DNA of 64,000 bases, from NCBI GenBank assembly GCA_949751835.1, contig CATKHK010000084.1, positions 124,001-188,000 on the forward strand, read 5' to 3'. Source of the DNA: Blepharisma japonicum (Eukaryota; Ciliophora; Heterotrichea; Heterotrichida; Blepharismidae). Of this stretch, positions 3,558 to 59,953 are shown piece after piece. The position numbers and the translations under genes are program-made. A model generated the notes under the pieces. It did no database searches and was not told the origin of the DNA. It was given only the letters and a program-made list of their open reading frames with translations. Numbering within the stretch: position 1 is the first letter of the stretch; the number at the start of each line of letters is the position of its first letter.

Positions 3558-5489
3558 TTAATAGATTGTAGCATAGTCGCTGAGCTTTTTTTCAAGGCTT
3601 TCTATGTTTGATTCGATGATATTGAGTTCTAATGACAATTCTCGCATTCTATTATTGTTCCCAGATCTTTCAGCTTTATCATAATTTACTTGTACTTTAT
3701 CTCTGTCATCTTTAAGTATTCTTAGCTTGCCTTGTATGTTTCTTATAATGTTATTGACATTTTTATTAGGCTCTGAAGGCTGCCTTACTTTTTGAGAGTC
3801 TTCCCAATTACTATTTTGAGTTTCATAATCCACCGTCTGTTGCCTGATTTCTGGTCTATCATAATCTATAGATTTGCGCCTGGCATCTGCCCTATTATCC
3901 ACAGTCTGCTGCCTGATTTCTGGTTTATTTTTCTGAGAGTCCTCCCATTTAAATACATTTACCATATTTTCGCTTTGATTTTCATACGTCCTGACTGGTA
4001 TATAAGTGTTTGCGCGATTTTTCCCTTCATTTTCTGCTATAACTTCACCAGTTTTTTTTTCACTAAAATAATTATCATTAGTCCCATTATAACTTTTTTC
4101 GATTTCTTGAGGGTAAATTTCTTCTTGGTAATTTTTTTGTTTTTTCTCTTTGACTTTAGGAGATTTTTCAATCTCTTCTGATTTCTTCATAATTTGAGAA
4201 TTTCTTTCATTTAGCATTTCAATTTCATTATCAAACTGCTTTTGAGTATCTAAAAACTGACTTTCTAGCATTTTCAGCTTCTGCTCTGTCTGCTTTAGCT
4301 TAAATGCTGTGCTTTCTTCTTTCTCTATTGCGGAATTCAGCTCAATTTCTAGCATTTCTTTGTCTCTTTTAAGAATCATCATTTCTTTTTCCATTGCTTG
4401 GGATCTGGCTTGGTCTTGCTTTCTTAATATTTGTAGAGCTAGAATTTGGCTTTTTAGCTGCTCATTTTCAGATTCTAATTGTCTTGCATTGTCTGCGATT
4501 TCTTTTAAGTTTTCTCTTTTGTCAGTAGAAAAGGACAGAGGAGGGAAAAATCCGGGCTGATTTAAATTTTGGGAAGGGAAAAGTCGTGGCTGCTGGCTAT
4601 AATTTTGTGGATAAAAGGGTGCCTGGGAGCTTATACTGGTGTTTTGGGATTTTAAAGCGTTTATTGATTGCTCTAGTGCTTCAGCTTGCTTCAGGAGGCT
4701 TATTTTAAGCTGAGATGAGTCAAGAGGGCTTTGAGGGACTGGCATTTGAGAAAGATTTGACATTTGAGAAAGATTTGGCATTTGAGGAATATTGGGCATT
4801 TGAGGAATATTGGGAATTTGAGCAATATTTGGCATTTGTGAAAGATTTGGCATTGGGGGAAGGTTTGGCATTTGAGGAAGCGATAGCATTTGAGGAGGAA
4901 AATAAGAGTTTTGAAGAGGATTATTAGGTGGAATTTGCTGAAAAAACTGAGGAGGAAGCTGTGGAGGGATTTGAGATGGATTTTGAGGCGGAACCTGAAG
5001 ATTTTGCTGATTTTGTATGTAATTTCTGTAAAGATCTTGCTTGTAGGTAGATTCTGGAGACATGCATCTAGAACCTTGATTAGATGGAGGAAATGAAAAC
5101 TGCTGAGGGAAAAATTGTGGATTTTTAGGTGTTTGTTGTAGTTTTGCTGCATATAAAGCGTCTTCTAAAGCCTTTGCTTGATTCAATAGCATATTTTTAA
5201 TTTCATCTGGCTGAGCTGGAGTTTGATTTTGAGAAAGAAACTGGTTATGAGAAATTTGGCGATTAGCCATCATTAAAGGATTCTGACTGTTCATGCTCAT
5301 AAAGCTTGTCCCAAATTCTCTTTCAGATTGGTCGAAAGATTCAGAAATGCAGGTTTGATCTCCATGCAGCCCTCTTATCCAGTTTTCTTCATTTTCTCTC
5401 GCATTTAAAGCTTTTTCTATTGAGTCTTCTTTTAGTTCTGAGAAATTATCAATTTCATTAGTTTTTATTCTGTAACCATCAGATTCCAT
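3558..5489 (-). CDS. Gln/Pro-rich coiled-coil protein with hexapeptide repeats
   Basis: A 643-residue protein of no recognised family. The first 140 residues are polar. Residues about 140-270 are Pro/Gln/Asn-rich and contain eight consecutive hexapeptides of type [LI]-[SP]-Q-M-P-N. Residues about 320-440 form a strong heptad coiled coil (ENEQLKSQILALQ and onward), and another helical segment lies at the C-terminus. The motif PEIRQQTVD occurs twice and WEDSQK three times near residues 510-570. It starts at ATG 5489 and stops with TAA. The composition suggests a structural, cortical or cilium-associated scaffold, but that is inference only. The gene is convergent with MCM4, with a 57-bp gap between them. 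Confidence 0.75.
   Translation of the reverse strand: MESDGYRIKTNEIDNFSELKEDSIEKALNARENEENWIRGLHGDQTCISESFDQSEREFGTSFMSMNSQNPLMMANRQISHNQFLSQNQTPAQPDEIKNMLLNQAKALEDALYAAKLQQTPKNPQFFPQQFSFPPSNQGSRCMSPESTYKQDLYRNYIQNQQNLQVPPQNPSQIPPQLPPQFFQQIPPNNPLQNSYFPPQMLSLPQMPNLPPMPNLSQMPNIAQIPNIPQMPNIPQMPNLSQMSNLSQMPVPQSPLDSSQLKISLLKQAEALEQSINALKSQNTSISSQAPFYPQNYSQQPRLFPSQNLNQPGFFPPLSFSTDKRENLKEIADNARQLESENEQLKSQILALQILRKQDQARSQAMEKEMMILKRDKEMLEIELNSAIEKEESTAFKLKQTEQKLKMLESQFLDTQKQFDNEIEMLNERNSQIMKKSEEIEKSPKVKEKKQKNYQEEIYPQEIEKSYNGTNDNYFSEKKTGEVIAENEGKNRANTYIPVRTYENQSENMVNVFKWEDSQKNKPEIRQQTVDNRADARRKSIDYDRPEIRQQTVDYETQNSNWEDSQKVRQPSEPNKNVNNIIRNIQGKLRILKDDRDKVQVNYDKAERSGNNNRMRELSLELNIIESNIESLEKKLSDYATIY
4741..4890 (-). 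repeat. 18-nt tandem repeat inside a coding region
   Basis: About eight imperfect copies of an 18-nt unit (on the + strand GGCATTTGAGAAAGATTT or GGCATTTGAGGAATATTG) encode the hexapeptide repeat of the Gln/Pro-rich protein. The unit is a multiple of three, so copy-number changes keep the frame. Confidence 0.85.
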
Positions 5490-33304: not shown

Positions 33305-33422
33305 GTTGTCGGCCATACTATGCCTAACGCACCAGATCCCATCCGAACTCTGAAGTTAAGCGGCATAAGGCGAGGTTAGTACTTGGGTGGGGGACCGCCA
33401 GGGAAGCCCTCGTGCTGACAGC
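33305..33422 (+). rRNA. 5S ribosomal RNA
   Basis: 118 nt. GTTGTCGGC at the 5' end pairs with GCTGACAGC at the 3' end (9 bp with G-U pairs). The internal ATCCCATCCGAACTCTGAAG and GGGTGGGGGACC segments match eukaryotic 5S loops, including the box A-like AAGTTAAGCGGC region of the internal promoter. A T-rich stretch follows. It occurs here as a single copy, not a tandem array. Confidence 0.96.
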
Positions 33423-33636
33423 TAAACTTTTATTTTGAAGATTTTTATTATAAGATCTTCTTGCTTCTTTAGAAAACCTTTCATATTTTATCAAGCTTAA
33501 TTTATGACATCTCTTATAAAAATTTTATTTGACTTTTTAGCAAAGCTAAACTCATTATTGAAGCTAAAATAAGCCTAACCAAATCTTTCGTCCCTCTCTT
33601 TCTAAATATTTAATATTTAAATAAAAATTCAAATAA

Positions 33637-34713: not shown

Positions 34714-34787
34714 GGTCCCATAGCTCAGCTGGTTAGAGCGCTGTGCTAATAACGCAGAGGTCGTGAGTTCGATCCTCACTGGGACCA
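34714..34787 (+). tRNA. tRNA-Ile (anticodon AAU)
   Basis: A 74-nt cloverleaf. The acceptor is GGTCCCA/TGGGACC with A73, the D-arm GCTC...GAGC, the anticodon stem CTGTG/CGCAG with loop CTAATAA (anticodon AAT), and the T-arm GTGAG TTCGATC CTCAC. No intron. A short T run follows as terminator. Confidence 0.97.
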
Positions 34788-35176
34788 CTTTTATGATTTT
34801 TCACAATTATTTACCAATTACTTAGTTTTATATTTTACGAGTGGATTTGCTTAATAAAATTCATTTTTAAAACCATGCTAAAATTTTATTCAAATATTTC
34901 CATTTTTATCAAGTTTTGTTTACAAAAATCTTTATTAGTATCTTATTGAGATTATGGATATAATTGTAATAGGATAAGGATAAAAAAGTTATTAATGATT
35001 CTTAAGGCTGAAAATGCTATTATGAAAAAAAATTAATAATCTTTTTATAAGTCAAGCTTATTTGAGCAAAGCTATTATCTATATAAGACTTCCTAGAAAT
35101 AAAACAATAGAGTTTTATTTATCTTTAAATTTCATTTAGAATTCCCGTTTTGAGACTAACAAAATATAATATCAAG
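34788..35176. other. AT-rich intergenic region
   Basis: 389 bp between the tRNA and the FYVE-kinase gene; nothing recognised. Confidence 0.55.
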
Positions 35177-42324: not shown

Positions 42325-45045
42325 TTATTCAGACTGGGCAAGTTCAATTCCTTGTATCTGTGGCTTGTCGTCTATACGATACTCTATAAGTTTTGTGTAC
42401 TTTCTCTTGAACTTGCAGAAGCATAAGCATAAAACGATTGATACTATGACTAAAACTCCTAAAAAGATAAGCCCTACGATGACTTGCCATGTTTGGATTA
42501 AATCTTCATTGACGCTACAACTTTCCTGCCAGCTTTTATATGACGTCCCATTTGCTACCACACAGTTAGGAGATTCATAGAGCTGTACAGTCCTTTTGCC
42601 ATTATCGCAGTAGCTTCTTTTTTCTATCATCATTGCTGATGTGCATATTTTGCAAGCATGAACCGTTTTCCACCTAAAAGCATAAATACAGTCAATTTGG
42701 CCTTGAAAAACTGGCCAGCCTTCTGATTCTGTTTTGTCACAGATAAAGTTAATCTGACTGAGAAATCGTTTATTAAGACCAGCTTTGCATTTTGAGCCTG
42801 CACCATAGCTGATAACAAAGCCTGTAGGGGTTTCTTGAATTGAAGTTAGTCTCGATCCTACATTAACTACAGCCATGCTATAATCTTTTACACATTCAGC
42901 TGAAGGCTGGGTTGGGTCATTTTCTATATATGGGATTTGAGTTTTATTGACAATTCCAAATGCATAGCCTTTTCTCATAAAATCATAATTGGAATAAGTA
43001 GGCAGAGAAAAATTGGAAGGATTGGCAACTGATAAGTAAAAATAGTTTTCATTGGCCATGACTGGGCCATAGAAAGTGTCATGGCAATAAAGCTTCATAC
43101 TTTCATCATTACAGTAATTAGATTGGTTTCCTTCGTTCATTCCTTGAATTCCTGTTAATGGAGATATATAATAAGTGCCGTTTTTTAAAATTAGGTAGTC
43201 AGAAACTATGCAAGCAGTGTGGTTTTGATTTACGATAGAAAATTCCGGACAAGCGGTACAGCTTTGGCCAGGTAAATCAGAGAAAGTCCCCTTTGGACAC
43301 TCTACACAGTTGACGTGGGAATCATCAGAAGTTGTCCCAGGTGGGCATGGTGTGCATTCATCACTATTTTCAACAGAAATATGCCCCACAGGACATTGAA
43401 TGCATGTCGGAGCTCCACCTTCTTTGCTCCCAGTAATTTCAATGCTATAAATTTTGCATTCATCTTTAGGGTCGCTAATTCCTGCAGAGTAATGCCGATA
43501 ATCCCATTTAAGAGATTTTATACCTTTAGTAAGTGGAAATGAATAATTATAAAAACCTTCAGAGTTTTCATGGTAACTCCCTTTCAAAAGCCCATCAATA
43601 AAAAACAGCAATCTTGTTTCATATGAAATTACATTTTTCATTGAAAAATTGAACGATACATATGCATCATTTTCTGTAATTGTGACTCTTCTTACCAATA
43701 CAATATTTGAGTTAAAGTCTGCGCTATCGCCAGAGCTAATGTGAGTCCCTCTAGCTTCCCAGCCTGAGCTTAAGCTGCACTTATTGGAATTTGAAGGTAT
43801 ACAATGATTTTCAAACTCTGCAGGAATAGTGCTCCAATGAGTAAAATTCAAGACTTTAGGAGCATAAAGCCCAGCTTGGCAAGCTACACATTGATTTTCA
43901 GCTTGAGTCTCTGTCATTGATGTGCCTGTTGGGCATGGCTCACATTCTGTTTCTAAAGTGTCTTGATTCATGATTTTATGATAATATCCTGCGTTACAGG
44001 TTTCACATGGAATACCACTTTCGTCATCTGGCAGCGAAAGTGTACTGTTATTGCATATCATTGGGTAGTTCCAAGAATAAACTTTGCTTCTTGATCCATT
44101 TATACATGAACTAAATTTCCAAGAATAATCATTAGCGGTGCATTCTTTTCTTTGTCTGCAGTCACTTCAAGATGTGCTCCCTGGAAGTGAATAAAAACCA
44201 TCAGGACAAGGTGAGCATTTTTCGCTAGCATTAGGCGAATAATAAGTGTTCATTTGACAGACATCACATTCATCAGATCCTGGATTACTGAACCCGGAAG
44301 GGCAAGGAGTACAGAAATGAGAAGCATTCTGAATACCGCGGATCTCAAAATACTTTATCTCAGCTTGATTTTCTTCATTAGTAGAGTACTTATCATAAGT
44401 AAATGCAATATTATGAAGGCCTGGTGTCAGGTCTAGAATCACAGTTTTCCATCCAATCTGTGAAATATCATTATCTCTGTAAACTTGATTATCGTCAATA
44501 TAAACGTGAAATTGTCCATTTGTTGAGTTATTATGCATGCTGATATCTTTTCTATAAGTGAATTTTACAGTCCCATTTTTGACTAAAAATGCATGATAAG
44601 CCAAGCTTGATTCAAACCAAGTGTCTTCATCGGCTGAGCCAGAGGATATTTTGTTACCGTCAAGTGTAGACCATGGTCTGCAGTTTGAGTTCAGTTCCCA
44701 GTTATAATACCCCATAGTCCAACAATAGGTACTAAAAGATAAATAAAAATTATTTCAATCGTTTTCATCACCTGAAAACCTTTCGCCACCTCCGATGCTA
44801 TAAGTATTTGCGGGGCAGGTAGCGCAAATTGGGTCATTTGAGGTCAGGTTTACATCTAAAAATGTCCCTGCTGGACAATTTACTGCACATGATAAATTTG
44901 TAATTGGTTCTGGGATTTCTTCTGTGCTATTACATTTGCCATTTGGGTAGAATATTGCTGTGCGTGTGTTGTCTTCTTCACAATCAGTAAAAGCATGATC
45001 AAAACAATCAAGTCCATATGCTACACTAAGAAAAAGCCATAGCAT
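42325..45045 (-). CDS. ELAPOR1/EIG121-like cysteine-rich type I membrane protein
   Basis: 906 residues in one frame with two TGA read as Trp (near 44752 and 44164); the standard code would split it into three. An N-terminal signal (MLWLFLSVAYGLDCF) leads to a long lumenal part. Repeated cysteine-rich GYY/CPxG modules (CPAGTFLDVNL, CPSGFSNPGSDECDVC, CPPGTTSDDSHVNCVECPKGTFSD) alternate with beta-rich segments and many N-glycosylation sites. One membrane helix (TWQVIVGLIFLGVLVIVSIVLCLCF) and a short cytosolic tail with a Tyr motif follow. Module order and the W...SGxxxS segments fit the ELAPOR (KIAA1324) family of endolysosomal or secretory-pathway receptors. Confidence 0.8.
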
Positions 45046-47648: not shown

Positions 47649-48089
47649 TTTATTAGTAATTATATTTTATGCCATCAAAAGACTTTGCTGTTGTGCCATT
47701 TAAGCAATGTAATAAGTAACTTTAATAATTTTTTACAAGCTGATAATTAATAATAAGGTTTTTCTATGAAGCTTTTTAGGGTCAAATTTAACTACTATTA
47801 ATATTCTACTTATAATTAGTTATATTTTTGCAATGCAAATATTATTCTCAATAATTTAATAATTATTTTTAAACTCCGTCTTCCAGTTAGGCATTTCCAA
47901 AAAGTCCTGCAATTAGGAATAAAAATCTACTGACTGTCCTAAGGTTATTTGAGTATCTAATTTTAAGAGTGTTAAAATAACTCTTTTAAAAGCTGAATAC
48001 AAGTAAATTTTTTTTCCCAAAAAGACTCTTATTTAAATCAAATGACTTTCTTCTTTTCTTTTAAATCAAAATCAGATGTAAATCATTAA
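47649..48089. other. Left boundary of the decayed array
   Basis: 441 bp of AT-rich DNA. It may contain further decayed sequence of the first X copy, but I cannot align it convincingly. Confidence 0.4.
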
Positions 48090-49222
48090 TATAAAAAGAA
48101 CAAGCCTAATCTTTACTATATTTTTATCATATAGACCTATATGCTTTATTAAGCAAATTTATTATATGGATTATTATTAAATTGATTGACATGCAAAAAA
48201 TATGAAAATATGATATAGATTTAAATGAATGAGCGCAAATAGCTCTTGGAATTTTAAATCTTTATAGAAAAAAGAATTCATTAAGCACATCACTGAAAAC
48301 TCTGGGCTTTTTTAACTTGCTGTATCCCAATTTTGGTTATCGGGAGGAAACAGAAGCTAAAGGGAGGAACATGAATTATACTTGATAGTTTTAGCCTTAA
48401 AAATAATACAATGAAGTAAGTGACTTTTATGTCATGTTCCTAATGAAAATGCTACTTACGTTTATATTGGCTAATTGTTTATGTATTGGGCGAAAGCCAA
48501 AATTTTCAATCTTACAAAAAAGCTATCTCTTAATTGTCGAAATGAACTGAAATTTATTCCTATGCAACACCCAAGATATGAGTCAGCTACATACCTAGGA
48601 TTATAATCAAAATGCAAGCAATTATGTGGTAGCTAGAAGCACACATTATCATTTCTAATCGTCCTGTGCAACAAAATGTTTTTATTCTGACGCATATACA
48701 AGTGATAGAATTTAAGTATTAGCAACCTCTTAGTGGACTATAAATACTATAAAACTTGAGTAAGTATGCCTAGGCTCAAATAATACTCATAACTTTGTGT
48801 GTTTTGAGGCTGCCCTAATTTCCACCTGCAAAAATCAATAAAGAAAAATTCATTAGAGCTATATCCATATTAATAAACCAGTGATTTTTCCAGTATTAAA
48901 TAAAATTATAGCTATATTAGGTGGAGGATCACATCAGTTTATTTGTTACATATTAAAGACTCACTAGATAAGCAATATTATAAATATGAGCTTGAAGAAT
49001 TCTTAAAGATATGAAGTGAAATTTAGAAACTGCATATGATAGAGAAGAAAATAAATAGCATATTCTAAATATTATTAGGAGCTGATGCATTAGCTCAGCA
49101 TTTGGGGTTGCATGGTATAGTATAGAAAATTTTGCTTTGCCACATAATTTTTTTATTTCTTTATTTTTCCTACTTTTAAGTAAGCCAAACTGTTAAGCAA
49201 ATAAGGCCTTGCAAAGATAATG
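48090..49222 (+). pseudogene. Decayed copy of gene X (unit 1)
   Basis: Long stretches align by eye to the intact gene X at about 54900-55930. Examples are GATTTAAATGAATGAG, TTTATATTGGCTAATTGTTTATGTATTGGGCG (versus the intact gene's GACAAATCCGTTTATGTGCTGGGTGGG) and the GGAGGATCA segment. It carries frameshifts, TAG/TAA stops and small insertions. Only the Kelch half is recognisable; the protease-like half is missing or too decayed. Homology extends past the stop into the 3' spacer. Confidence 0.75.
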
Positions 49223-49490
49223 CAGTTTTGTCGAAATTTAGAGTTAGCTTTCTATAAATTGGTATAGAAATATGTCGATTTAAAATGACAAACTAAGAGC
49301 TATGAACCATAAAAACTTTCATGAAAGCTCGCATCCTCAATAAAATATTTTTCAAAAAAAATTTTCCAATTCATAAACCTCTAAGCAATCAGTTAAAATT
49401 TAATTAAAAAGTAAATTCATGATATTAAATTAAATCAAGTGGATATTAAAAGATTTTTAAATTTATAATTTCTTTTAGTAAAAGTGATTT

Positions 49491-49898
49491 CTATAGCTGA
49501 TCAGCTACACAATCATTAGGGATTTCACAAATATCTGTATCGCCAGATACAATGCCTAAATAAATGGCTTCTCCAAAGTCAATTTTGAACTTTGAATCAC
49601 ATTTTTCAAGCTCCACCATAAACCTTGGATTTAAATCTGTGATGCAGTTTTGGTTTTTAAAACATTGCATGACAAGATTTTCAAAAGTTAGCTGAGATGA
49701 TTCAGTGTTTCCTGATAAGTTTGAGCACTGATCACTCTTATCTGATACTGCATAATTTGCAGTACCAAATATATTTATAGGAAGTTTTGAAAAGTCATGG
49801 GCCGTTAAACAGTCTAAATTTCAACTGCTTCTCCGCTCTTCTTCATTGCTCATTTGCATGTTTAATTTTCTATTAATCTAAATTCTATTTATTAGCCA
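49491..49898 (-). pseudogene. Gene Y, copy A, N-terminus degraded (unit 1)
   Basis: Starting at the ancestral ATG (49898) the frame meets TAG after four codons, so the original N-terminus is lost. From an internal ATG at 49859 a frame of 122 codons stays open to TAG with UGA=Trp (SSWNLDCLTAHDFSKLP...LENLVMQ-type core, CFKNQNCITDLNPRFMVELEKCDSK, ending NDCVADQL). It is therefore either a recent pseudogene or an N-terminally shortened functional copy. Similarity to copies C and D is very high in the C-terminal two thirds. Confidence 0.7.
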
Positions 49899-50439
49899 TT
49901 GATCCCTTTTACATTATGAGTGCGATTTGTAAAAGTTTAATTTGCATAAATAATTGATCTTGACTGTTTTTTAAATTAAAGAAGATTTTAATTCTTTGGA
50001 GACTCGCAATGAGGTGAAAATAATATGGATTATGAATTTAGAATTTAACTGGTTTGAACTTTTGTTAATAGACTAGTTAGATATTGAAATTTGGAGCAAG
50101 GCTAGGTGCATTTGGAATAGTGCTAATTATATTTTTAGAGGTCGTAAGTTTATATTCTTTAAGACATTAATTTTTGAAAGCTGTGCTTAAGGCTAAAATT
50201 AATTCACCATTGCATAAAATTTATTATTTTTCAAGTTGCATTGACTCCTATTCTTGTAATCTTTAGTCTTAATAAAATAAAATTCTTAGATTAAGTAATT
50301 TTTAGCATATCAAATTCTTTCTGGTAGCTATATACCACTGAATAGATTTCTCAAAATCTCAATTTATAAGGAAAGGCGGCATTATTCATAAGAGAACTAA
50401 TTTAATTTTAAATTATCTATAACTAAAAATATTATCCTT

Positions 50440-50680
50440 AATCCGCATAATTATCGTTAAGAAGTGTATCAAATTGCTCAAAAAAAAATTTTAATTTCCA
50501 TCACGTTTTATATTCCTTAAAGATTCTCATCAATTATAATCCTAACAAAAGTAGCAAGTCTATCATGGTAAATCTGTGCTCAAAATTCAATCCCATTGAT
50601 TTATTAACTTTACAGTCAGACATTTTAATAAAATATCCACAGAATTACGCAACGCAGGCACAAATATAATAATTTATTCA
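50440..50680 (-). pseudogene. Truncated YIPF 3' end (unit 1)
   Basis: AT-rich DNA aligning to the 3' part of the intact YIPF gene at 59215-59430. Matches include GTTAAGAAGTGTATCAAATTGCTCAA, TTTCCATCACG and ACGCAGGCACAAA. It is disrupted and carries no 5' part of the gene. It lies directly upstream of the next X copy. Confidence 0.6.
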
Positions 50681-50699
50681 TTATTTATGCTAATTGCTC

Positions 50700-52290
50700 A
50701 ATATTAAGGCTTTATGGCTTTGGTAATAATCATTCAGCAATCTGGTCTTTTGTTTCCGTCTGTCTTCATATCCATGAACCGCTATGCTCTATCTGCAAGG
50801 AGAGGATTCTTCAGTAATGCTTCTTTATTCATTCATCTACACTATGAATTATTTTATCCCTTTCGTCAACTTGTAGCATCTTTACACATGCGGCTTATTA
50901 TTCCATATACTGCCATGTCAACTTTCCTATTTCTTTCTATCAGCATCTAGCTCTTCTGCCCTTTTCGATAGCTTTATCTTTATCTAAGGGTGCTTCAATA
51001 TTCTATCAGCGTATGCTTTTCTGTTTCAGGTAAACTGCTCTAAATGTGTATGTCATTATGTGCTAGATGTCTTTCCGTCATTTGCCGTTATAGTAGATAA
51101 GGCCGACTCTTAGCCTATGCATTGCTCCTATCATATGAATTTACTTTAATAAATCGTATAATTCCAGTTATGGAGTCAAATCATTATACGGCTACACATA
51201 TGATGACTATATACACATGTTGCAATAGATATTGCCTTGTAGCATATTCAGTTATATCTGATAAAGCTTTACAATTAATTCATTGCGCATTCAGAAATAA
51301 TTAAGATTTTAAATTTGATGCTTAAAGTGTTTTTGTAACGTCAAGTTACCTTGAATTTACACTTGCAGCTTTCAAAATCAATTTGTATTTCTTAGCAATT
51401 ATATATATCAATTAATGCTGTAAAGCCCTTTTCACATTAGCATCGCAGATCCTGCGAGTTTTTCCTTATCATTCTTAAAAACTAAAAAGTTTCTGGAATA
51501 GGCAATTATTTATTTACTTTTGCACCAGATAATAAAGAAGACTTATTTGAACAGGACACAAAACTTTCCATCAGTATAAATTTTTCAGAAAATCTATATC
51601 AATTCAACTCTCGTTGCAAATTGGTAAATAGAGCAAAGCACAGTTTTAGGTATTTTTAATTAATTTTGTCTGTGAATCTTAATTCTTTATTAAACAAATT
51701 TATGCATTCGAATTATATAGCTATATGAAGCAATACCATGGTATGGGTTGATATCATTTTGAATGGCTTGGAGTTCGCAATAATTAAATAGATTTGAATG
51801 AATAGGTACGAATAATCTTGATCGCTTTAATTCATTAAATAAAAAGGTAAGTGTTGGATAAATTAATAAAATTTAAGACTTGTGCCTTTCTGATATATGA
51901 ATTCTAACAACTGGGGTTAATGAAGCTGACAGCAGGAGAATTAATGAATTTTAATATCATTACATCTAAAAAGGCAATAATTGAAGCTTGCTTATATATT
52001 AAAAAAATTTTTTATATACTGGGGGGAAGCTAAATCTTAAATTTTATTAGATCATTTTTCTAAAGAAAAAATTAGCAAGTATTATTTCTAGAAGTATCAA
52101 AGATTGAAAAAATACATGCCTATGATTAAATAATGCTTGTGATATTAATTTATGATTTAAGAATATTTTAAATTTAGTTAAAAGACAAGGTTATATAATT
52201 AATATATTTTACTTTTGCAACTGCTATGCAAATAAGAGCTCAAATGCCTTTTATTTATAAAGAGAATACTAAAATTAACTTTCTATAATC
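50700..52290 (+). pseudogene. Decayed copy of gene X (unit 2)
   Basis: It aligns along most of gene X. The N-terminal part near 50740-50800 is weak. The protease-like part at 51230-51550 is clear (for example TTTTAAATTTGATG, GAATTTACACTTG, AATAAAGAAGACTTATT), as is the Kelch part to about 52250. It is disrupted by many stops and indels, including a TAG in the region matching the catalytic-His strand. It is the most complete of the pseudogene copies. Confidence 0.72.
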
Positions 52291-52560
52291 TGTATCAAAA
52301 TTTGTTTCTTCATTTCAAAGCAAGAGTTTCTCTGAGTCGTAAAATAAATTATATCTCTTTTTGGATTTTTAAACTAAAAATAATTGCCAATATTAAAAAT
52401 CTCATTCTTTAAAAGAAATTTCTAATTCGGAAACCTTTATATTTATTGTAAAACTGAAAATTAATTTTCAATTCAAAAGTTAATTTTAAAAAATTAATAA
52501 AAATTTAAGTAAATCGAGCAGATATCAAAAGAATTTTAAATAATTTTAACAAAAGTCATT

Positions 52561-53303
52561 ATAATAGCTAATCAGCTACACAATCATTCGGGATTTCACA
52601 AATAGTTATATCTCCAGATATTATATCTGAATGAATGGCTTCTCCAAAGTCAAATTTGAACTTTGAATCATATTTTTCAAGCTCCATCATAAATCTTTGG
52701 ATTCAGACTGTTTGATTACTTAAGATTTATAGAGTTGATCGTTTACTATTGATATCTAATGCTAACATCCAACTTTTTTATACATAAAAAGTTTACAGAC
52801 CTGTTTGTTGTAAATATGTTTCTAGTTCCACAGCTTATAAGTGTGCTGCAAATTTTCACAATTCCATCCTATATTAGAAATTGATCATTTAATCATCGTA
52901 CGATGTTAAAGCAGACAGAATTAGCTCATATAAATTATCTAGGGATCGGTCAGAAGACCTCCCTCTAGATTACTTATAGTACTCAGCTATGAAAGAAAGC
53001 CCATACAAAATAGGATCTCATAATAAAACTTGCACAATAAATTATGATGCAGTTTTTATGCTTAGAACATTGCCAACTAGATTTTTCAAAGTCTGCTGCA
53101 CCAGCTCAGTATCTCCTGATATGTTTGAGTATTGATCACTCTTATCTGATATTGCATAATTTGAGGTACCAAATATATTTATTGGGAGAATTGAGAGATC
53201 AAGGGTCGCAAAAAAGTCTAAATTTCAACTGCTTCTGCGCTCTTCTTCATTACTCTTTTGCATGTTTAATTTTATATTAATCAAGTTCTTTTTTATTAGC
53301 CAT
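52561..53303 (-). pseudogene. Gene Y, copy B, interrupted by an insertion (unit 2)
   Basis: Both ends match gene Y: the 3' part at 52561-52704 and the 5' part at 53043-53303, whose ATG 53303 starts ATGGCTAATAAAAAAGAA. The terminal CAG codon has become TAG, and early TAA stops and frameshifts occur. About 340 bp of unrelated DNA (52705-53042) separate the halves. Confidence 0.75.
52705..53042. mobile_element. Unidentified ~340-bp insertion in gene Y copy B
   Basis: This segment is absent from the other three Y copies, where the sequence runs straight from TTGGATTTAGATCTG to TAATGCAG. No clear terminal inverted repeats, ORF or target-site duplication is visible. It could be a short non-autonomous element, an unremoved internally eliminated sequence or filler DNA; the element type is not established. 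Confidence 0.3.
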
Positions 53304-53449
53304 TTATCCTTTTGCATTAACATCATAAGTTCGATTTGTAAAATCTTAACTTGGTATAAAAATTTGACATAATAAAAAGCGATAACTGGCATTTTTACAT
53401 AAGCAAAATTAATTAAATTCATACTTATTTATATCCAAGAAAATTATCA

Positions 53450-53670
53450 TTAATTCGAATTAAATATCATAAAAAAGTATATTACTCAATGAAATAATAA
53501 GATATGCCTAAAGTATCAAAGTGCTGAAAAATATTTCTTTTCATCATCAGGTTTTTTTTATGTTCCTAGAGATTACTTATCAATAAAAAACTGGACCAAA
53601 AAAGCAGCAAGTCTCATCTTCTCATCTCTGTCCATCTAAGCATACATTTGGATATATTAATAAAATTTAA
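53450..53670 (-). pseudogene. Truncated YIPF 3' end (unit 2)
   Basis: It aligns to the last ~200 bp of the YIPF gene (59215-59410), with shared blocks ATCAAAGTGC, CAGAGATTG/TAGAGATTAC, GCAGCAA, CTGTCCATCTAAG and TTTGGATATAT. The reading frame is destroyed and the 5' part of the gene is absent. Confidence 0.65.
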
Positions 53671-53860
53671 GCATCTCACTCATTGTCGATTCAATCTAAC
53701 CCAAAAGGCAAACGCATATAAATTTTTGCAAAGCTAGCGTCAGTTCATCATTAATCCTACAGTTCAAAACACCTTTTGCGAATCAAAAACTTCACTTGAA
53801 TAGTATGAGTCATCTAATTAACTATATAATTTTATTATGCACTAAAATATCTATTACAAA

Positions 53861-55930
53861 ATGAATGCAAATCAGCTGTTTGTTCCAAAAGGCTCTTCAT
53901 TGAACCGAAGAAGTAGTCTTTCTCCTTTTCTTTCAAATCAAAGTCCAACTCCACTTATTAACTCAGAAAGATCAAGTCATCCTAATCTTAGTCGAGTTGG
54001 TTCATTATCCAGAATCGGTGGCAGTATAGCATCAAGTCCTACTCCACAGCCCCATGACATAAACAGCATTACGCTAAAAAAATATTCCCACAGCAGTTCT
54101 AAAAGTCTTAACAACGTTGATTATATAACAATTCTTGATACTTTTCAAGGTAATCAGTCATCTCCAGTATATGAGACCACCCTTTCAAGTCAAGTATCAA
54201 AAGCAGCTCCAAGAAATAGAACCATCATTTTCAATAAAAATCCAGGACCTTTGCTTAATGTAGGGTATGGGATCTCAGAAAAAGTTAACTCTGACTTGAA
54301 TTCATTTTATAGGAATTCTCATTATAGGAAAAAGCAGCAGCCGATCCCTCCTCCGCGTGATAAGATAAATTCTATTTTTTCAATTTATTATTTGGGAAGG
54401 GGCTTCAATGTATCCGGAAGTACTTTAGGGAGATCAAATGGACTTGGAATTTTGCTAAGTCCAGACTTATGTCTTACAACGCATTCAGTGATTGCTGATG
54501 AAGATGCTGCCCTTAATTCATATGCTCAATTCAGAAATAGTGAAGTTTTTAAATTTGATCCTCAGAGGTGCTTTGTGACATCAAGCAATCATGAATTCAC
54601 ACTTGTAGCTTTTCAGAGTCAATCTGCATTTGCTTTGCAATTATATAAGCCAATTAACATTACAGAGCCCTTTTCACTTAGCATTGGAGATTCTGTGACC
54701 TTTTTCCCTTATGATCCCCTAACATCTAAAAAGGTGCTGGCAATAGAAAATAATTTATTTACTTTTACATCAGGCAATAAAGAAGACTTATTGCCTGGAA
54801 CACCAATATTTTCATCTGAATGGGTTTTTCAAGGGATTTATATCAGATATAGCTCACACATCAACATTGTAAATAGGGTTGAGCACATTTTCGACTATTT
54901 TGAATCAATTTTGTCTATGAGTCCTAACCCTTTATTAGACAGGTTTTTGCATTTAGATCACATAGGATGCATGAAGCAATTTCATGACATGAATTTATAT
55001 TATTTTGAATGGCATGGAAGGAATACATGAAGATATGATATTGATTTAAATGAATGAGTTCGAATAAATCTAGGAAGCTTTAAGTCTTTAGAGAAAAAAG
55101 GTAGGCATTGAACATATCATTGAAATTCAAGGCTTGTATATCTCTCTGATATGTCAATTCTAATTATTGGAGGAAAGTCGAAGTTGACGGGAGGGGAAAC
55201 TAACGAAGTTTGAGTGTTTTCGCCTTCTAAGGGTAATAAATTAAAGAAAATGAATTCTATGTCGATTGCAAGAGAAAGCCCCGCTTGTGTTTATATTGAC
55301 AAATCCGTTTATGTGCTGGGTGGGAAGCCAAATCTTCAATCTTGTGAAATGCTATCTCTTAATAGCCAAAAATGAGCCGATATTGCTCCAATGCAGCATC
55401 CAAGATATGATGCAGCTGCATGCTCAGGATTAAATAATACTCACATATTTGTGTTTGGAGGCTGCCCTATTTCTCCCTCTGGGAAATCAATTGAAATTTA
55501 TTCAATAAAGAAAAATCAATGAGAGTTACTTCCTATTTCGATGCCAAAGCCTCTAGTAAAGCCAGCCCTTTTTCCAATCACAAATAGAAAACTAGCTATT
55601 TTAGGAGGAGGATCATCTTCAATTTATTTAATATATATTGAAGACTCATTAGAGCAGCAAGATTATAAATTCAAGCTTAAAGAATGCATTAAACATTTAG
55701 AAGAAAATTTAGAAACTTCTTGACCTGTAGCATATGATAGGGAAAAAAATAAATTATTTATACTAAATCTTAATAGGAGCGGATACATCAGTGCAACTCC
55801 TGGGGTTGTAGATTATTGTTTACAAGATTTTGAATTTGGACAAAGGCAAGACCATACAATTGATTTATTTTCTACTTTTGCAACTTCAAAGCAAGCAAGA
55901 GTCCAAACTCCTATTTCTTTGCATAGATAA
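53861..55930 (+). CDS. Gene X: trypsin-like-fold plus Kelch-repeat protein (the only intact copy)
   Basis: A 689-residue protein. Residues 1-160 are Ser-rich and disordered. Residues about 170-335 look like a trypsin-like fold: GLGILLSPDLCLTTHSVI has the catalytic-His strand, HEFTLVAF sits where the Asp strand would be but has Glu, and the GDSGGP site reads LLPGTPIFSS, with no serine nucleophile. It is therefore probably an inactive protease fold. Residues about 390-600 are Kelch repeats (SQKWADIAPMQHPRYDAAACSGLNNTHIFVFGG, KKNQWELLPISMPKP...LAILGGG). Eight Trp are TGA and two TGG. A standard-code reading ends at the first TGA, before the Kelch half. Probably a protein-binding scaffold; partners unknown. 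Confidence 0.85.
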
Positions 55931-56279
55931 TGCAGCATAGTGTATACTAAAATTAATTTTCTATAAATTGAAAAGAAATATGTCCATTTTAAATTAAGAA
56001 TTAAGCGCTCATATCAATGACAAAAAATTTTCATTTTTTATTGTTTTATTTACCGATTTTTTGGTTTTATTCACCAAACAATAAATAGAGATACTAAAGC
56101 AGATATATTTCCAAAAGAATTATTGAAAATTTTTTTTCAATCCATAGGCCTCTCTTCATAAATTAAGATAGTCAATTAATTTAAGTAAATAGTCAATTTG
56201 GAAATTTTAAAAAATTAATTAATTCAATTAGATATGAAAAGATTTTTAAAATTATAAAAACTTTTATAAAAAGTTGTTT

Positions 56280-56690
56280 TTATAGCTGATCAGCTATACA
56301 ATCATTAGGGATTTCACAAATACTAGTGTCCCCAGATATAATGCCTGAATAAATCGCTTCTCCAAAGTCAATTTTGAACTTTGAATCGCACTTTTCAAGC
56401 TCTACCATAAACCTTGGATTTAGATCTGTAATGCAGTTTTGATGGTTAAAACATTGCATTACTAGATTTTCCAAGGTCTGCTGCGATGAGTCAGTGTCTC
56501 CTGATAAGTTTGAGTACTGATCGCCCTTATCTGGTATTGCATAATTTGCAGTACCAAATATATTTATTGGAAGTTTTGAAAGGTCGAGGGCCGCAAAAAA
56601 GTCTAAATTTCAACTGCTTCTACGCTCTTCTTTATTGATGTTCTGCATTTTTGACTTTCTTTTAACTTCTAAATTCTTTTTATTAGCCAT
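56280..56690 (-). CDS. Gene Y, copy C: small protein of unknown family
   Basis: A 136-residue intact copy with UGA=Trp (RRSSWNLDFFAALDLSKLP). The N-terminus is basic (MANKKNLEVKRKSK), a middle part is polar, and the C-terminal half is conserved (TLENLVMQCF, NQNCITDLNPRFMVELEKCDSK, GDTSICEIPNDCIADQL). No known domain. Four Cys recur at fixed places in the copies. It is convergent with gene X, with 350 bp between stops. The standard code would break it at the single TGA. Confidence 0.75.
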
Positions 56691-57204
56691 TGGTCTCTTT
56701 TGCATTATTAGGGCGATTGTACAATTATAATTTGCTATAAAACACCAGTCTTTAATTTTTTTAAATTTAAGAAAAATTTTGAAGATTTGGAAAGTCTTAG
56801 TGAGGTGAAAATCATTATGAATTGCAAAATACAAATTGATTGGTATTAAAATTTTTATTAATAGAATAGCTAAATATTGAGGATTGGAACAATGAAAATT
56901 TGAAATAAGGTTGTTTGGGTTCTTAAACTTCATAATGTGTGCTCTTAAAGGCAAAGCTATTTTACAAAACTCCCTTAAAGATAAGATCTCATCATAATCG
57001 CATGAAAAAGCTTTTTTCTGAGTGTATGGGCCACTTCTTCTAATTCTTTGATTAATTATTTTCAGCCTGCCAATTTCTTTTGCTAGGTAGACAACTTAAT
57101 AAAGCTCTTTAAATAATAATTTGAAATAGAGGCCTGTATGATTTCATAAAGAAAACCAATTTATTTTTAATTTATCTATATCCAAGAAAATCATGACTAA
57201 ATCT
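56691..57204. other. Duplicated upstream region of gene Y copy C
   Basis: About 250 bp next to the Y start align with the regions upstream of copies A and D (for example TTTGCATTAT followed by a GCGATT block, and GAGGTGAAAAT shared with A), so the promoter was duplicated with the gene. The remainder shows no gene. Confidence 0.5.
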
Positions 57205-57420
57205 CATTAATTATCACTAAAGAAGTTTAGATTACTATATCTGCAATAAAATTGTCCTGAAAGCATCTAAAGTGCTACAAAATATTTTTCACTTACCATA
57301 ATATTTTAATACTCTCCTAAATGTTGCCTAAAATTAAAGATCCTAGAATAAAAGATGTAAGGCCCATCCTTCCCATCTAATTCGATAATTTGGTTAATTG
57401 CACAAACGCAAGCTGCCACA
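57205..57420 (-). pseudogene. Truncated YIPF 3' end (unit 3)
   Basis: It aligns with the 3' end of the YIPF gene (ACTAAAGAAGT, GAAAGCATCTAAAGTGC, TTTTTCACTTACCAT). Disrupted; the last matching block runs straight into the X remnant of unit 4. Confidence 0.6.
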
Positions 57421-57925
57421 AATGCTATACTTAGCTTCCTATTACTATTAAAGAAAGTGTTCGGAGGCTGCCTTAATTCTCCTACTGGAGAATTAACTCA
57501 AATTTATTCAATAAATAAAAATCAAAGAGCATTTTGGTATTTCTCTATCAAAGCCTCTAATGAGGCTAGCACTATTTCAAGTAAATACAAAAAGAAGTTA
57601 TATTAGATGAAGACCATCTTCAATTTATTATTTATTTTATGCAGAAGACTCATCAGACTAGCAAGACTATAAATATAAATTTAAGGAATTAATTAAAAAT
57701 TTAGGAGAGTTTCACTTGACCTTTAGAACATAGATGGGAGGAAATAAAATTTGATATAATATAATAAGGTAGAAGTTGATATTAGGGCGATCCCCATCTT
57801 GCTTATTATCATCCGAAAAGCTTTCAAATTTGAAAAAGTAAATAAATCACACAATAAATTCATTTTTACTCTTCCTGCTTTAAAGGAAATGATAACGCAA
57901 ATCCCTATTTCTTTTTTAAAGATAA
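57421..57925 (+). pseudogene. Decayed 3' remnant of gene X (unit 4)
   Basis: Aligns with the last third of gene X: TTCGGAGGCTGCC, CAAATTTATTCAATAAA, AAGCCTCTAATGAGGC and CCTATTTCTTT...GATAATA near the stop. The 5' two thirds, including the protease-like part, are absent. It has several stops and frameshifts. Confidence 0.72.
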
Positions 57926-58245
57926 TACACTATAGTGTAAATGCAAAATTTGCTTTCTATAAATCGATATCAAAATATGTCTATTTCAATTCTATGTAGA
58001 GATTAATTGCAAATAAAAACTATGATATTTTTTCCATAGTATACTAATGATAATAGAGCTCATATTTCCAATAAAATTCTCACGCAAAAAAAATTTTCCA
58101 ATTTATAAATCTATGTGCCTATCCTCCAAAGACGAATTTTAATTTTCATTTAAAAAACCAATTTTTGAAATTAATAAAATTATTAAATTAAAGCAGTGGA
58201 TATTAAAGGATATTTAAATTATATTTACTTATAACAAAAATTTCA

Positions 58246-58689
58246 CTATAACTCATCAATAATACAATCGTCAGGAATTTCACAAATATCTGTGTCCCCG
58301 AATACAATTCCTGAATAAATGTCTTCCCCAAAGTCAAATTTCAACTTTGTGTCACATTTTTCCAGTTCCACCATAAACCTTGGATTCAGGTCTGTAATGC
58401 AGTTTTGATTTTTAAAGCATTGCATGACAAGATTTTCCAAAGTCTGTTGTGTTGAAGTCATTCGGGATTTCATAGACTCGTTTGATGATTCATTATCCCC
58501 TGATAAGCTCGAGTACTGATCGCTCTTATCTAATATTGTATAATTTGCAGTAGCAAATGTATTTGTTGGGAGTTTTGAGAGGTCAAGGGCTGTAAAGAAG
58601 TCTGAATTCCTGCTCTTTCTGCGTCTTTCTTGATTGCTCTTATGCATGTTTGGTTTTCTATTAACTTCTAGATTCTTTTTATTAGCCAT
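58246..58689 (-). CDS. Gene Y, copy D: small protein of unknown family
   Basis: A 147-residue intact copy without any TGA. It has the same layout as copy C: basic N-terminus (MANKKNLEVNRKPNM), then FFTALDLSKLPTNTF, a Ser-rich insert absent from copy C (SSNESMKSRMTST), and the conserved C-terminal half with LENLVMQCFKNQNCITDLNPRF and DDCIIDEL. The absence of stops among many substitutions suggests selection. It lies 520 bp from the intact YIPF gene on the same strand; its X partner in this unit is a remnant. Confidence 0.75.
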   Translation of the reverse strand: MANKKNLEVNRKPNMHKSNQERRRKSRNSDFFTALDLSKLPTNTFATANYTILDKSDQYSSLSGDNESSNESMKSRMTSTQQTLENLVMQCFKNQNCITDLNPRFMVELEKCDTKLKFDFGEDIYSGIVFGDTDICEIPDDCIIDEL

Positions 58690-59209
58690 TGCTCCTTTGC
58701 ATTATAAGTGCGATTAGCAAAATTTTTAATTACTATAAACAAATATAAAAACAACTTCTTGATTACTTTTTAAATTTTAGAAAGATTACTGTGGTTTGGA
58801 AATACTTAAATAAGGATGAAAATAATTTATAAATTACAAAATTTATAAATTAATTGGATTCAAAAACCGATTAACTGAATTGATAATTCTTAAGGATTTG
58901 AAATATTTAGTGTTTAAAAATATTAATTAGCTATGAAAAGATTCTCTGATAAACTTGGTTTAAGGCTAAGAATTATTCACTATACAAAAATAGTTATCTT
59001 CAAATTTGATCGACTATTCCTAAATTTCTTGACTTCAATATGAGCAACTTCTAGCTTTATTTAGTATCAAGATTATAGTGCACTTACTGATAGGCTAATT
59101 ACTTAATAGCAATCTTTCACTTCTTAGTTTACTTGAGAATAAAGAGTTTTAATGGTTAAATAAAGTTAGTTTAATTTTTCATTAACATTTATCAATTTAA
59201 TTCAAATAA
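58690..59209. other. Intergenic region between Y copy D and YIPF
   Basis: 520 bp, AT-rich. The first ~200 bp resemble the upstream regions of the other Y copies; no other gene is seen. Confidence 0.5.
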
Positions 59210-59953
59210 TTACTCGTTAAAGAAGTATAAATTGCTCAATAGAATAATAAGAATATGTCCCGAAAGCATCAAAAGTGCAGTAAGATATTTTTTACTTTCC
59301 ATCACGCTTTTGATATTTTCCCAGAGATTGTTCATCATTAATAGCCCAGACCAAAATGCAGCAAACCCCATCGCTGTCCATCTAAGTAGACTATTTGGAT
59401 ATATGCATAAGATGCAAGCAGGCACAAAAGGTATTAATGAATACCCATAAAGTGAAATAATTTCTAATAAACTTAGTTTACTTCCAGCCCCTTTAAGAAT
59501 CGTGTATAAAGTAAAAGGAATAATTGCAGCTTGCATATAAATATAAGTTCCAGCACATAATAGTCTTGGAGTGTTAGAATCCCAATTCCCATATGCTATA
59601 AAGTACCCAAAGTTGCTTGCAGCCGCAAGGATGAAGATTAATGTTGTCACTGTCCAAAATGGCGTGTATAGATCTGGAACTCCATCCTCAAAAAATTGTC
59701 CCTTTGAGAATGGATGGAAAACCTTTTTTATCCTTTGAATAGCAGTCTGGGTGTCTATATCAAAATAAGCTTTATAAAAGCTGAGTTCCCAGAATTTACT
59801 GGAATATTCTCCATAAGCCTCTACGATATCTTCGAACTTTTGCAGCTCATCTTTATCATCTGTTTTCAGATTTGTAGTTTCAGATGGCTCGTGGTCTAAT
59901 GAGATTTGGCCATATGAATTAATGTCTGACTCGATGTCTGCCCACTCTTTCAT
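59210..59953 (-). CDS. YIPF1/2-type Yip1-domain Golgi membrane protein
   Basis: A 247-residue protein. A polar N-terminus is followed by SFYKAYFDIDTQTAIQRIKKVFHPF, then GVPDLYTPFWTVTTLIFILA (the DLYGPFW signature of YIPF1/2). Five membrane helices follow, with GYSLIPFVPACILCIYP typical of Yip1 domains. Such proteins act in ER-Golgi trafficking with Rab GTPases. This is the only full copy; three 3' fragments of it are scattered through the array to the left. All Trp are TGG. Confidence 0.9.
   Translation of the reverse strand: MKEWADIESDINSYGQISLDHEPSETTNLKTDDKDELQKFEDIVEAYGEYSSKFWELSFYKAYFDIDTQTAIQRIKKVFHPFSKGQFFEDGVPDLYTPFWTVTTLIFILAAASNFGYFIAYGNWDSNTPRLLCAGTYIYMQAAIIPFTLYTILKGAGSKLSLLEIISLYGYSLIPFVPACILCIYPNSLLRWTAMGFAAFWSGLLMMNNLWENIKSVMESKKYLTALLMLSGHILIILLSNLYFFNE

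What the first reader, a model, noticed from the sequence alone, without database searches (positions are those of the whole stretch)
48090..59953. Four-unit tandem array of a gene pair (X and Y) undergoing birth-and-death decay
The same order, X on + then Y on - then a YIPF tail on -, repeats four times (units about 48.1-50.7, 50.7-53.7, 53.9-57.4 and 57.4-60 kb). X is intact only in unit 3, Y is intact in units 3 and 4 and partly open in unit 1, and YIPF is whole only at the right edge. Such a long pseudogene-rich array is unusual in an otherwise gene-dense, presumably macronuclear, ciliate chromosome. X and Y may form a functional pair (a convergent locus amplified as a unit) whose copies are being lost at different rates.
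Basis: partly seen in the sequence, partly recalled or inferred. Interest (0 to 1): 0.88.

Follow-up and report, generated by a model that had tools for sequence, protein, structure and literature searches.

The report
Tandem gene duplicates, some dying, Blepharisma
A stretch of a Blepharisma (single-celled ciliate) chromosome was copied four times in a row; one large gene survives in only one copy while a small neighbouring gene of unknown function is kept open in three, an ordinary case of duplicate genes being kept or lost at different rates.

Summary
The array is real: four tandem units at about 47.82-59.95 kb, each with X, Y and YIPF 3'-end sequence, apparently from one ancestral junction. 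X (degenerate trypsin-like domain plus kelch repeats, also in Stentor) is intact only in unit 3; the other three copies are shredded. Y (small, no known family, found only in Blepharisma) is open in units 1, 3 and 4 with no frameshift among them (pairwise dN/dS 0.17-0.25, w=1 rejected). Y1, called 'partly open', is a complete frame starting where a B. stoltei protein starts, though its own branch does not exclude w=1. Y2 is broken, probably recently. The functional-pair idea is not supported: six Y genes outside the array are not near X-type genes. X looks like a hitch-hiker and extra Y like what was kept; that step is inference. Ordinary birth-and-death evolution. In passing: the region is collinear with another contig and three Y-bearing contig pairs behave alike, hinting at an old large-scale duplication.

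The parts
47821..49301 (+). X1 relic: upstream flank and codons 1-~43 at 47821-48113, then codons ~355-679 and downstream; the middle is deleted
   Evidence: 38 frameshifting gaps and 10 stops in the aligned part
49491..49859 (-). Y1, open frame of 122 codons from an internal ATG
   Evidence: same start and length as P0002
50160..50703 (-). YIPF 3' flank and 3' end relic, unit 1
   Evidence: score 150, shuffle maximum 87
50704..51232 (.). Unmatched stretch where the 5' part of X2 would be expected
   Evidence: no similarity to X3 5' part or YIPF above shuffles
51233..52288 (+). X2 relic (codons ~204-527 at 51233-52137, and a 3' piece at 52162-52288)
   Evidence: 24 frameshifting gaps and 12 stops
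52562..53263 (-). Y2, broken: 1-bp frameshift, an insert of about 335 bp at 52712-53046, early stop near the end
53367..53712 (-). YIPF 3' end relic, unit 2
   Evidence: score 217, shuffle maximum 79
53861..55930 (+). X3, intact, 689 aa: degenerate trypsin-like domain plus kelch repeats
56280..56690 (-). Y3, intact, 136 aa
56945..57428 (-). YIPF 3' flank and 3' end relic, unit 3
   Evidence: score 192, shuffle maximum 70
57457..57999 (+). X4 relic, from codon 531 onward
   Evidence: 13 frameshifting gaps and 2 stops
58246..58689 (-). Y4, intact, 147 aa
   Evidence: 90% identical to P0001 of B. stoltei
59210..59953 (-). YIPF, complete Yip1-domain gene, 247 aa
   Evidence: PF04893 45.9 bits, cut-off 28.6

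Best explanation
One ancestral tandem duplication joined the 3' part of a YIPF gene to a point about 140 bp upstream of gene X. Unequal crossing-over then expanded the X(+)-Y(-)-YIPF-tail(-) unit to four. The units then diverged by birth-and-death: YIPF fragments were dead on arrival, three X copies decayed, X3 stayed under strong purifying selection, and Y1, Y3 and Y4 (and until recently Y2) were kept as genes. Shown here: the array, the common junction, the decay of X1, X2 and X4, constraint on X3 and on the Y frames taken pairwise. Inferred: the unequal crossing-over, that extra Y (dosage or slightly different versions) is what selection keeps, and that X and YIPF sequence was merely carried along.
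For: The three tails end at YIPF 59469, 59457 and 59434, and the X3 upstream flank starts 7 bp after one of them and matches the left edge of unit 1. X3: w 0.09 against its C82 paralogue (2dlnL 406.5); X1, X2, X4 branches 0.60, 0.35, 0.47 against 0.109, 0.074, 0.092 for the two intact genes, with 38, 24, 13 frameshifting gaps and 10, 12, 2 stops. Y1-Y3, Y1-Y4, Y3-Y4: w 0.25, 0.20, 0.17, w=1 rejected (2dlnL 16, 29, 34). Frameshifting gaps: 0 in the three Y coding pairs (369 nt aligned) against 5, 9, 8 in their ~200-nt 5' flanks and 2, 3, 1 in ~90-nt 3' flanks. B. stoltei proteins: X3 88% (P0003), Y4 90% (P0001), Y1/Y3-type 85/84% (P0002), all three with longest contig 861209.
Against: On its own branch Y1 has w 0.48, not distinguishable from 1 (2dlnL 1.66); the order of Y1/Y2/Y3 is unresolved, one other topology being 1.7 lnL better than the one used. 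X2's branch w (0.35) is below 1 (2dlnL 10.65) although X2 is plainly broken, so in-frame codons of a pseudogene can look constrained, or X2 died late; the same caution applies to Y2. No expression data. 529 bp of unit 2 (50704-51232) match neither X3 nor YIPF.
Confidence: 0.87

Rival explanations
1. X and Y form a functional convergent pair amplified together, and the array preserves their partnership.
Against: No X-Y adjacency found elsewhere: six Y genes outside the array, the nearest X-type or kelch match on a shared contig being 78 kb away. The C82 X paralogue has no Y in 27.5 kb scanned. X has a Stentor relative at 47-48% (P0010) while Y searches found only Blepharisma (2 of 8 and 6 of 456 candidates). 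Three Y to one X retained.
Confidence: 0.06
2. All copies are decaying neutrally; the open Y frames are short enough to survive by chance.
For: Y is short; the Y1 branch alone does not exclude w=1; pseudogene X2 also shows a branch w below 1.
Against: 0 frameshifting gaps in Y coding pairs against 5-9 in ~200-nt 5' flanks; at the X-relic gap rates 9-14 would be expected per 366 nt. Pairwise w 0.17-0.25; a B. stoltei protein of the same length and start as Y1 exists.
Confidence: 0.04
3. Assembly artefact: allelic or misassembled copies placed in tandem.
For: None found; reads were not available.
Against: Copies differ by 12-32%, far beyond the heterozygosity of 0.003% and 0.47% given for two B. 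stoltei strains (PMC9942806, passages seen). The genome DNA search with the array found only C82 and two short C11 stretches elsewhere.
Confidence: 0.03

Closest known systems
Birth-and-death evolution of tandem gene clusters
   Same: Tandem copies of one unit, some constrained, some pseudogenes, different fates of linked genes, a truncated neighbour gene carried at unit edges.
   Different: Nothing essential; the unit holds two unrelated genes and only the small one is kept open in several copies.
Heterotrich kelch-family proteins (B. stoltei P0003 and P0011, Stentor SteCoe_24183 = P0010)
   Same: X3 is 88% identical to P0003 and 47-48% to P0010 over nearly its whole length, with kelch repeats.
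   Different: Those records are named only as kelch or uncharacterised proteins; the N-terminal trypsin-like domain is recognised here only through a C130 paralogue (Trypsin_2, 31.9 bits, cut-off 27.6).
Y family of Blepharisma (P0001, P0002, P0017-P0020; C118, C51, C22, C6, C50, C26)
   Same: Short proteins sharing a core around C-x5-CITDLNPRF (invariant Cys, Cys, Thr, Pro, Phe).
   Different: Array members form their own subgroup (89% support). They differ more between species (32 of 269 residues in Y4-P0001 and Y1-P0002) than four other orthologue pairs (29 of 525; Fisher p 0.002, sites treated as independent), but this rests mainly on Y1-P0002, whose orthology is uncertain: Y4-P0001 (9.5%) is no more divergent than C22-P0018 (10.3%).

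Membership tests
Birth-and-death tandem cluster | Several head-to-tail copies of one unit | tested here: met
Birth-and-death tandem cluster | Mixture of constrained genes and pseudogenes | tested here: met
Birth-and-death tandem cluster | Copies diverge rather than being homogenised | tested here: inconclusive
   Y1-Y3 dS 0.36, Y1-Y4 and Y3-Y4 dS 0.72-0.78; flanks 70-82% identical; gene conversion was not tested and the Y1/Y2/Y3 order is unresolved
Kelch-repeat protein (X) | Kelch motifs above Pfam cut-off | tested here: met
   PF01344 49.1 bits, cut-off 20.1, and others
Trypsin-like peptidase (X N-terminal domain) | Pfam Trypsin_2 match above cut-off in X3 | tested here: not met
   Not listed for X3; 3 of 15 members of A2 match at E up to 10, best 0.17; the C130 paralogue passes the cut-off
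Trypsin-like peptidase (X N-terminal domain) | Complete His-Asp-Ser triad | tested here: not met
   Aligned with the C130 paralogue, X3 keeps a His, has Glu at the Asp column and Pro at the Ser column; which columns are catalytic is recalled from the GxSGxP motif, not from a call
Trypsin-like peptidase (X N-terminal domain) | Trypsin-like fold | not tested
   Structure prediction never ran
Yip1 family (YIPF) | PF04893 above cut-off | tested here: met
   45.9 bits, cut-off 28.6
Any Pfam family (Y) | Match above cut-off in Y4 | tested here: not met
   Best for Y4 13.5 bits against cut-off 27; across 11 family members the best E is 0.017, cut-offs not shown; best PDB match E 0.084

The most novel reading that the evidence does not exclude
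After an old genome duplication in Blepharisma, one of the two collinear regions (C82) kept X but lost Y, while the other (C84, this window) amplified Y by tandem duplication; the extra Y copies, one with a relocated start codon, have since taken on separate roles. The array would then be a lost duplicate replaced by local amplification of a lineage-specific gene.
Probability: 0.15. Interest if true: 0.5.

Novelty: new member of a known kind. Interest (0 to 1): 0.3.

Why it matters
It is a clear example, in a ciliate, of two linked genes meeting opposite fates after joint tandem duplication; the dead X copies, YIPF tails and flanks give an internal yardstick for the small Y genes. The collinear contigs met on the way could make an old large-scale duplication in Blepharisma testable.

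Tried and rejected
Functional X-Y pair: rejected for lack of adjacency elsewhere. Neutral survival of Y frames: disfavoured. Introns as the cause of the broken X frames: the 15-16 bp introns given for B. stoltei (PMC9942806, passages seen) cannot explain 13-38 frameshifting gaps plus 2-12 stops per copy; X3, Y1, Y3 and Y4 are single open frames. A mobile element in Y2: the insert of about 335 bp has best local scores of only 58-61 against the rest of the window (no shuffle control made), and the genome DNA search with the whole array reported no copy (which skips common words), so no transposon family was identified. RNA genes inside the array: none at Rfam gathering scores. Structural confirmation of the trypsin-like domain: not obtained; a model of Y was not attempted. 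P0002 as an unambiguous Y1 orthologue: left open, since it matches Y1 at 104 of 122 and Y3 at 103 of 122 and the split with Y1 has 74% support; P0002 stands for 2 clustered sequences, one of which was not seen. B. stoltei counterparts of the C82 X paralogue and of the C118/C51 Y genes were not among the hits; whether they are lost, unannotated or missed was not settled. A paper search for ciliate, birth-and-death and tandem listed 10 of 20 papers, one for tandem duplication, pseudogene and macronuclear listed 6; listings only, none opened.
Full report
What was checked. The window lies at C84:124001-188000 of an assembly of 45.2 Mb in 224 contigs. Frames are open with TGA read as tryptophan. 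Seven orthologue pairs compared with Blepharisma stoltei are 85-97% identical, so this is a Blepharisma other than B. stoltei; the species was not established.

The array. Self-BLAST and tblastn confirm four units. Unit 1, ~47821-50703: X1 relic (5' part 47821-48113, then codons ~355-679; the middle deleted), Y1 49491-49859, YIPF tail 50160-50703. Unit 2, ~50704-53712: 529 bp unmatched, X2 relic from 51233, broken Y2 52562-53263 with an insert of about 335 bp, tail 53367-53712. Unit 3, ~53719-57428: X3 53861-55930 and Y3 56280-56690 intact, tail 56945-57428. Unit 4, ~57457-59953: X4 relic from codon 531, Y4 58246-58689 intact, complete YIPF 59210-59953. The tails beat their shuffles (0 of 200 each) and three controls do not. 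The tails end within 36 bp of each other in YIPF (59434-59469), and X3's upstream flank starts 7 bp after the unit-2 tail and matches the left edge of unit 1, which points to one ancestral junction.

Fates. X3 against its full-length C82 paralogue (65% identical): w 0.09, dS about 2.3. X1, X2 and X4 carry 38, 24 and 13 frameshifting gaps and 10, 12 and 2 stops in 924, 900 and 449 aligned nt, with raised w. Y1, Y3 and Y4 are open, pairwise w 0.17-0.25, with no frameshifting gap among them against 5, 9 and 8 in ~200 nt of 5' flank and 2, 3 and 1 in ~90 nt of 3' flank. By branch, w is 0.48 (Y1, not different from 1), 0.24 (Y2), 0.17 (Y3) and 0.22 (Y4). Y2, though broken, therefore looks recently lost; the caution is that the plainly broken X2 also gives a branch w of 0.35, significantly below 1. 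Y1 and Y2 share a 2-bp deletion in the first codons. Y1 begins at the next methionine, which is present in Y3, Y4 and P0001 and is where P0002 of B. stoltei and the C118 and C51 paralogues begin.

Relatives. The X search gave 14 proteins among 7997 scored candidates: B. stoltei (88% and 41%), Stentor (47%), one MMETSP transcript and metagenome or unnamed sources. X3 combines kelch repeats with an N-terminal domain recognisable as trypsin-like only through the C130 paralogue. Eleven further places in the genome match the X N-terminal part. Y relatives were found only in Blepharisma: 6 proteins, each B. stoltei, among 456 candidates. In this genome 11 Y matches fall on 7 contigs, 5 of them in the array. 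Outside the array no Y gene is near an X-type match. Array Y genes differ more between species (32 of 269 residues) than four other Y orthologue pairs (29 of 525), but mostly because of Y1-P0002, whose orthology is uncertain; Y4-P0001 alone (14 of 147) resembles C22-P0018 (15 of 146).

Surroundings. The window is collinear, inverted, with C82: X (65%), the gene left of the array (77%), weakly 40.3-40.7 kb (31-41%), 37.6-39.6 kb, and a 913-aa gene at 21.2-24.0 kb (95%) match in order over about 48 kb of C82. Against a simple picture: the 906-aa gene at 42328-45045, inside the block, has no C82 copy (best 35% on C73), YIPF has no close copy (best 41% on C13), and C82 holds no Y or YIPF in the 27.5 kb scanned. 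Three contig pairs bearing Y paralogues show 2, 3 and 3 collinear tblastx clusters in 10 kb, the Y gene itself being one of them each time. Of the 42 other pairs compared, 37 have none, 4 have one and one (C11/C88, two X-type loci) has two, which lie in the X gene. The Y pairs have dS 1.2-2.3 and B. stoltei has both members of two of the three pairs. This suggests an old large-scale duplication, not proved to be genome-wide. Searches for Blepharisma with whole genome duplication (4 papers listed) and Stentor, heterotrich and genome duplication (10 of 11 listed) showed no title or abstract start describing one in Blepharisma; only listings were seen there, plus passages of PMC9942806 and PMC9942856.

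Verdict. A genuine but ordinary tandem duplication with birth-and-death decay. New points are the selective retention of Y frames and the lack of support for a functional pair. Confidence is high for the array and for constraint on X3, Y3 and Y4, fair for Y1, and low for any statement about what Y does. After checking, confidence in the main explanation was set at 0.87 instead of 0.88 and the artefact rival at 0.03 instead of 0.02, because linkage in B. stoltei rests only on contig length and no reads were seen.

Noticed in passing
window 21220-55930 against G000 C82:8208-55972: Long collinear paralogous block (inverted); three further contig pairs carrying Y paralogues (C118/C51, C22/C6, C50/C26) share neighbours too: possible old whole-genome duplication in Blepharisma.
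   Followed up: partly
window 52712-53046: About 335 bp inserted in Y2; no strong match in the window and none reported by the genome search with the whole array; origin unknown.
   Followed up: partly
window 50704-51232: 529 bp where X2's 5' half should be; no similarity to X3's 5' part or to YIPF above shuffles.
   Followed up: partly
G000 C130:49768-50340 (L051): X-type paralogue with a Trypsin_2 match above cut-off, a GPSGSPVF stretch, kelch repeats and a weak PB1 match: suggests the X family began as a protease-kelch fusion.
   Followed up: partly
G000 C28:373529-386834: Several YIPF matches close together, three of them with a TAA inside: another possible local YIPF cluster, or split genes.
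   Followed up: no
G000 C82:8208-10280, C118:72268-72651, C51:193022-193405: The X paralogue and two Y paralogues had no counterpart among the B. stoltei hits.
   Followed up: no
G000 C88:176300-176467 (end of L046): The contig ends in what looks, from a recalled motif, like the start of an 18S rRNA gene.
   Followed up: no
window 33305-33423 and 34714-34788: 5S rRNA gene and a tRNA-Ile gene 1.3 kb apart on the same strand.
   Followed up: no
window 4740-4896: Direct repeats of 67 bp, 82-85% identical, inside a 643-aa open frame.
   Followed up: no
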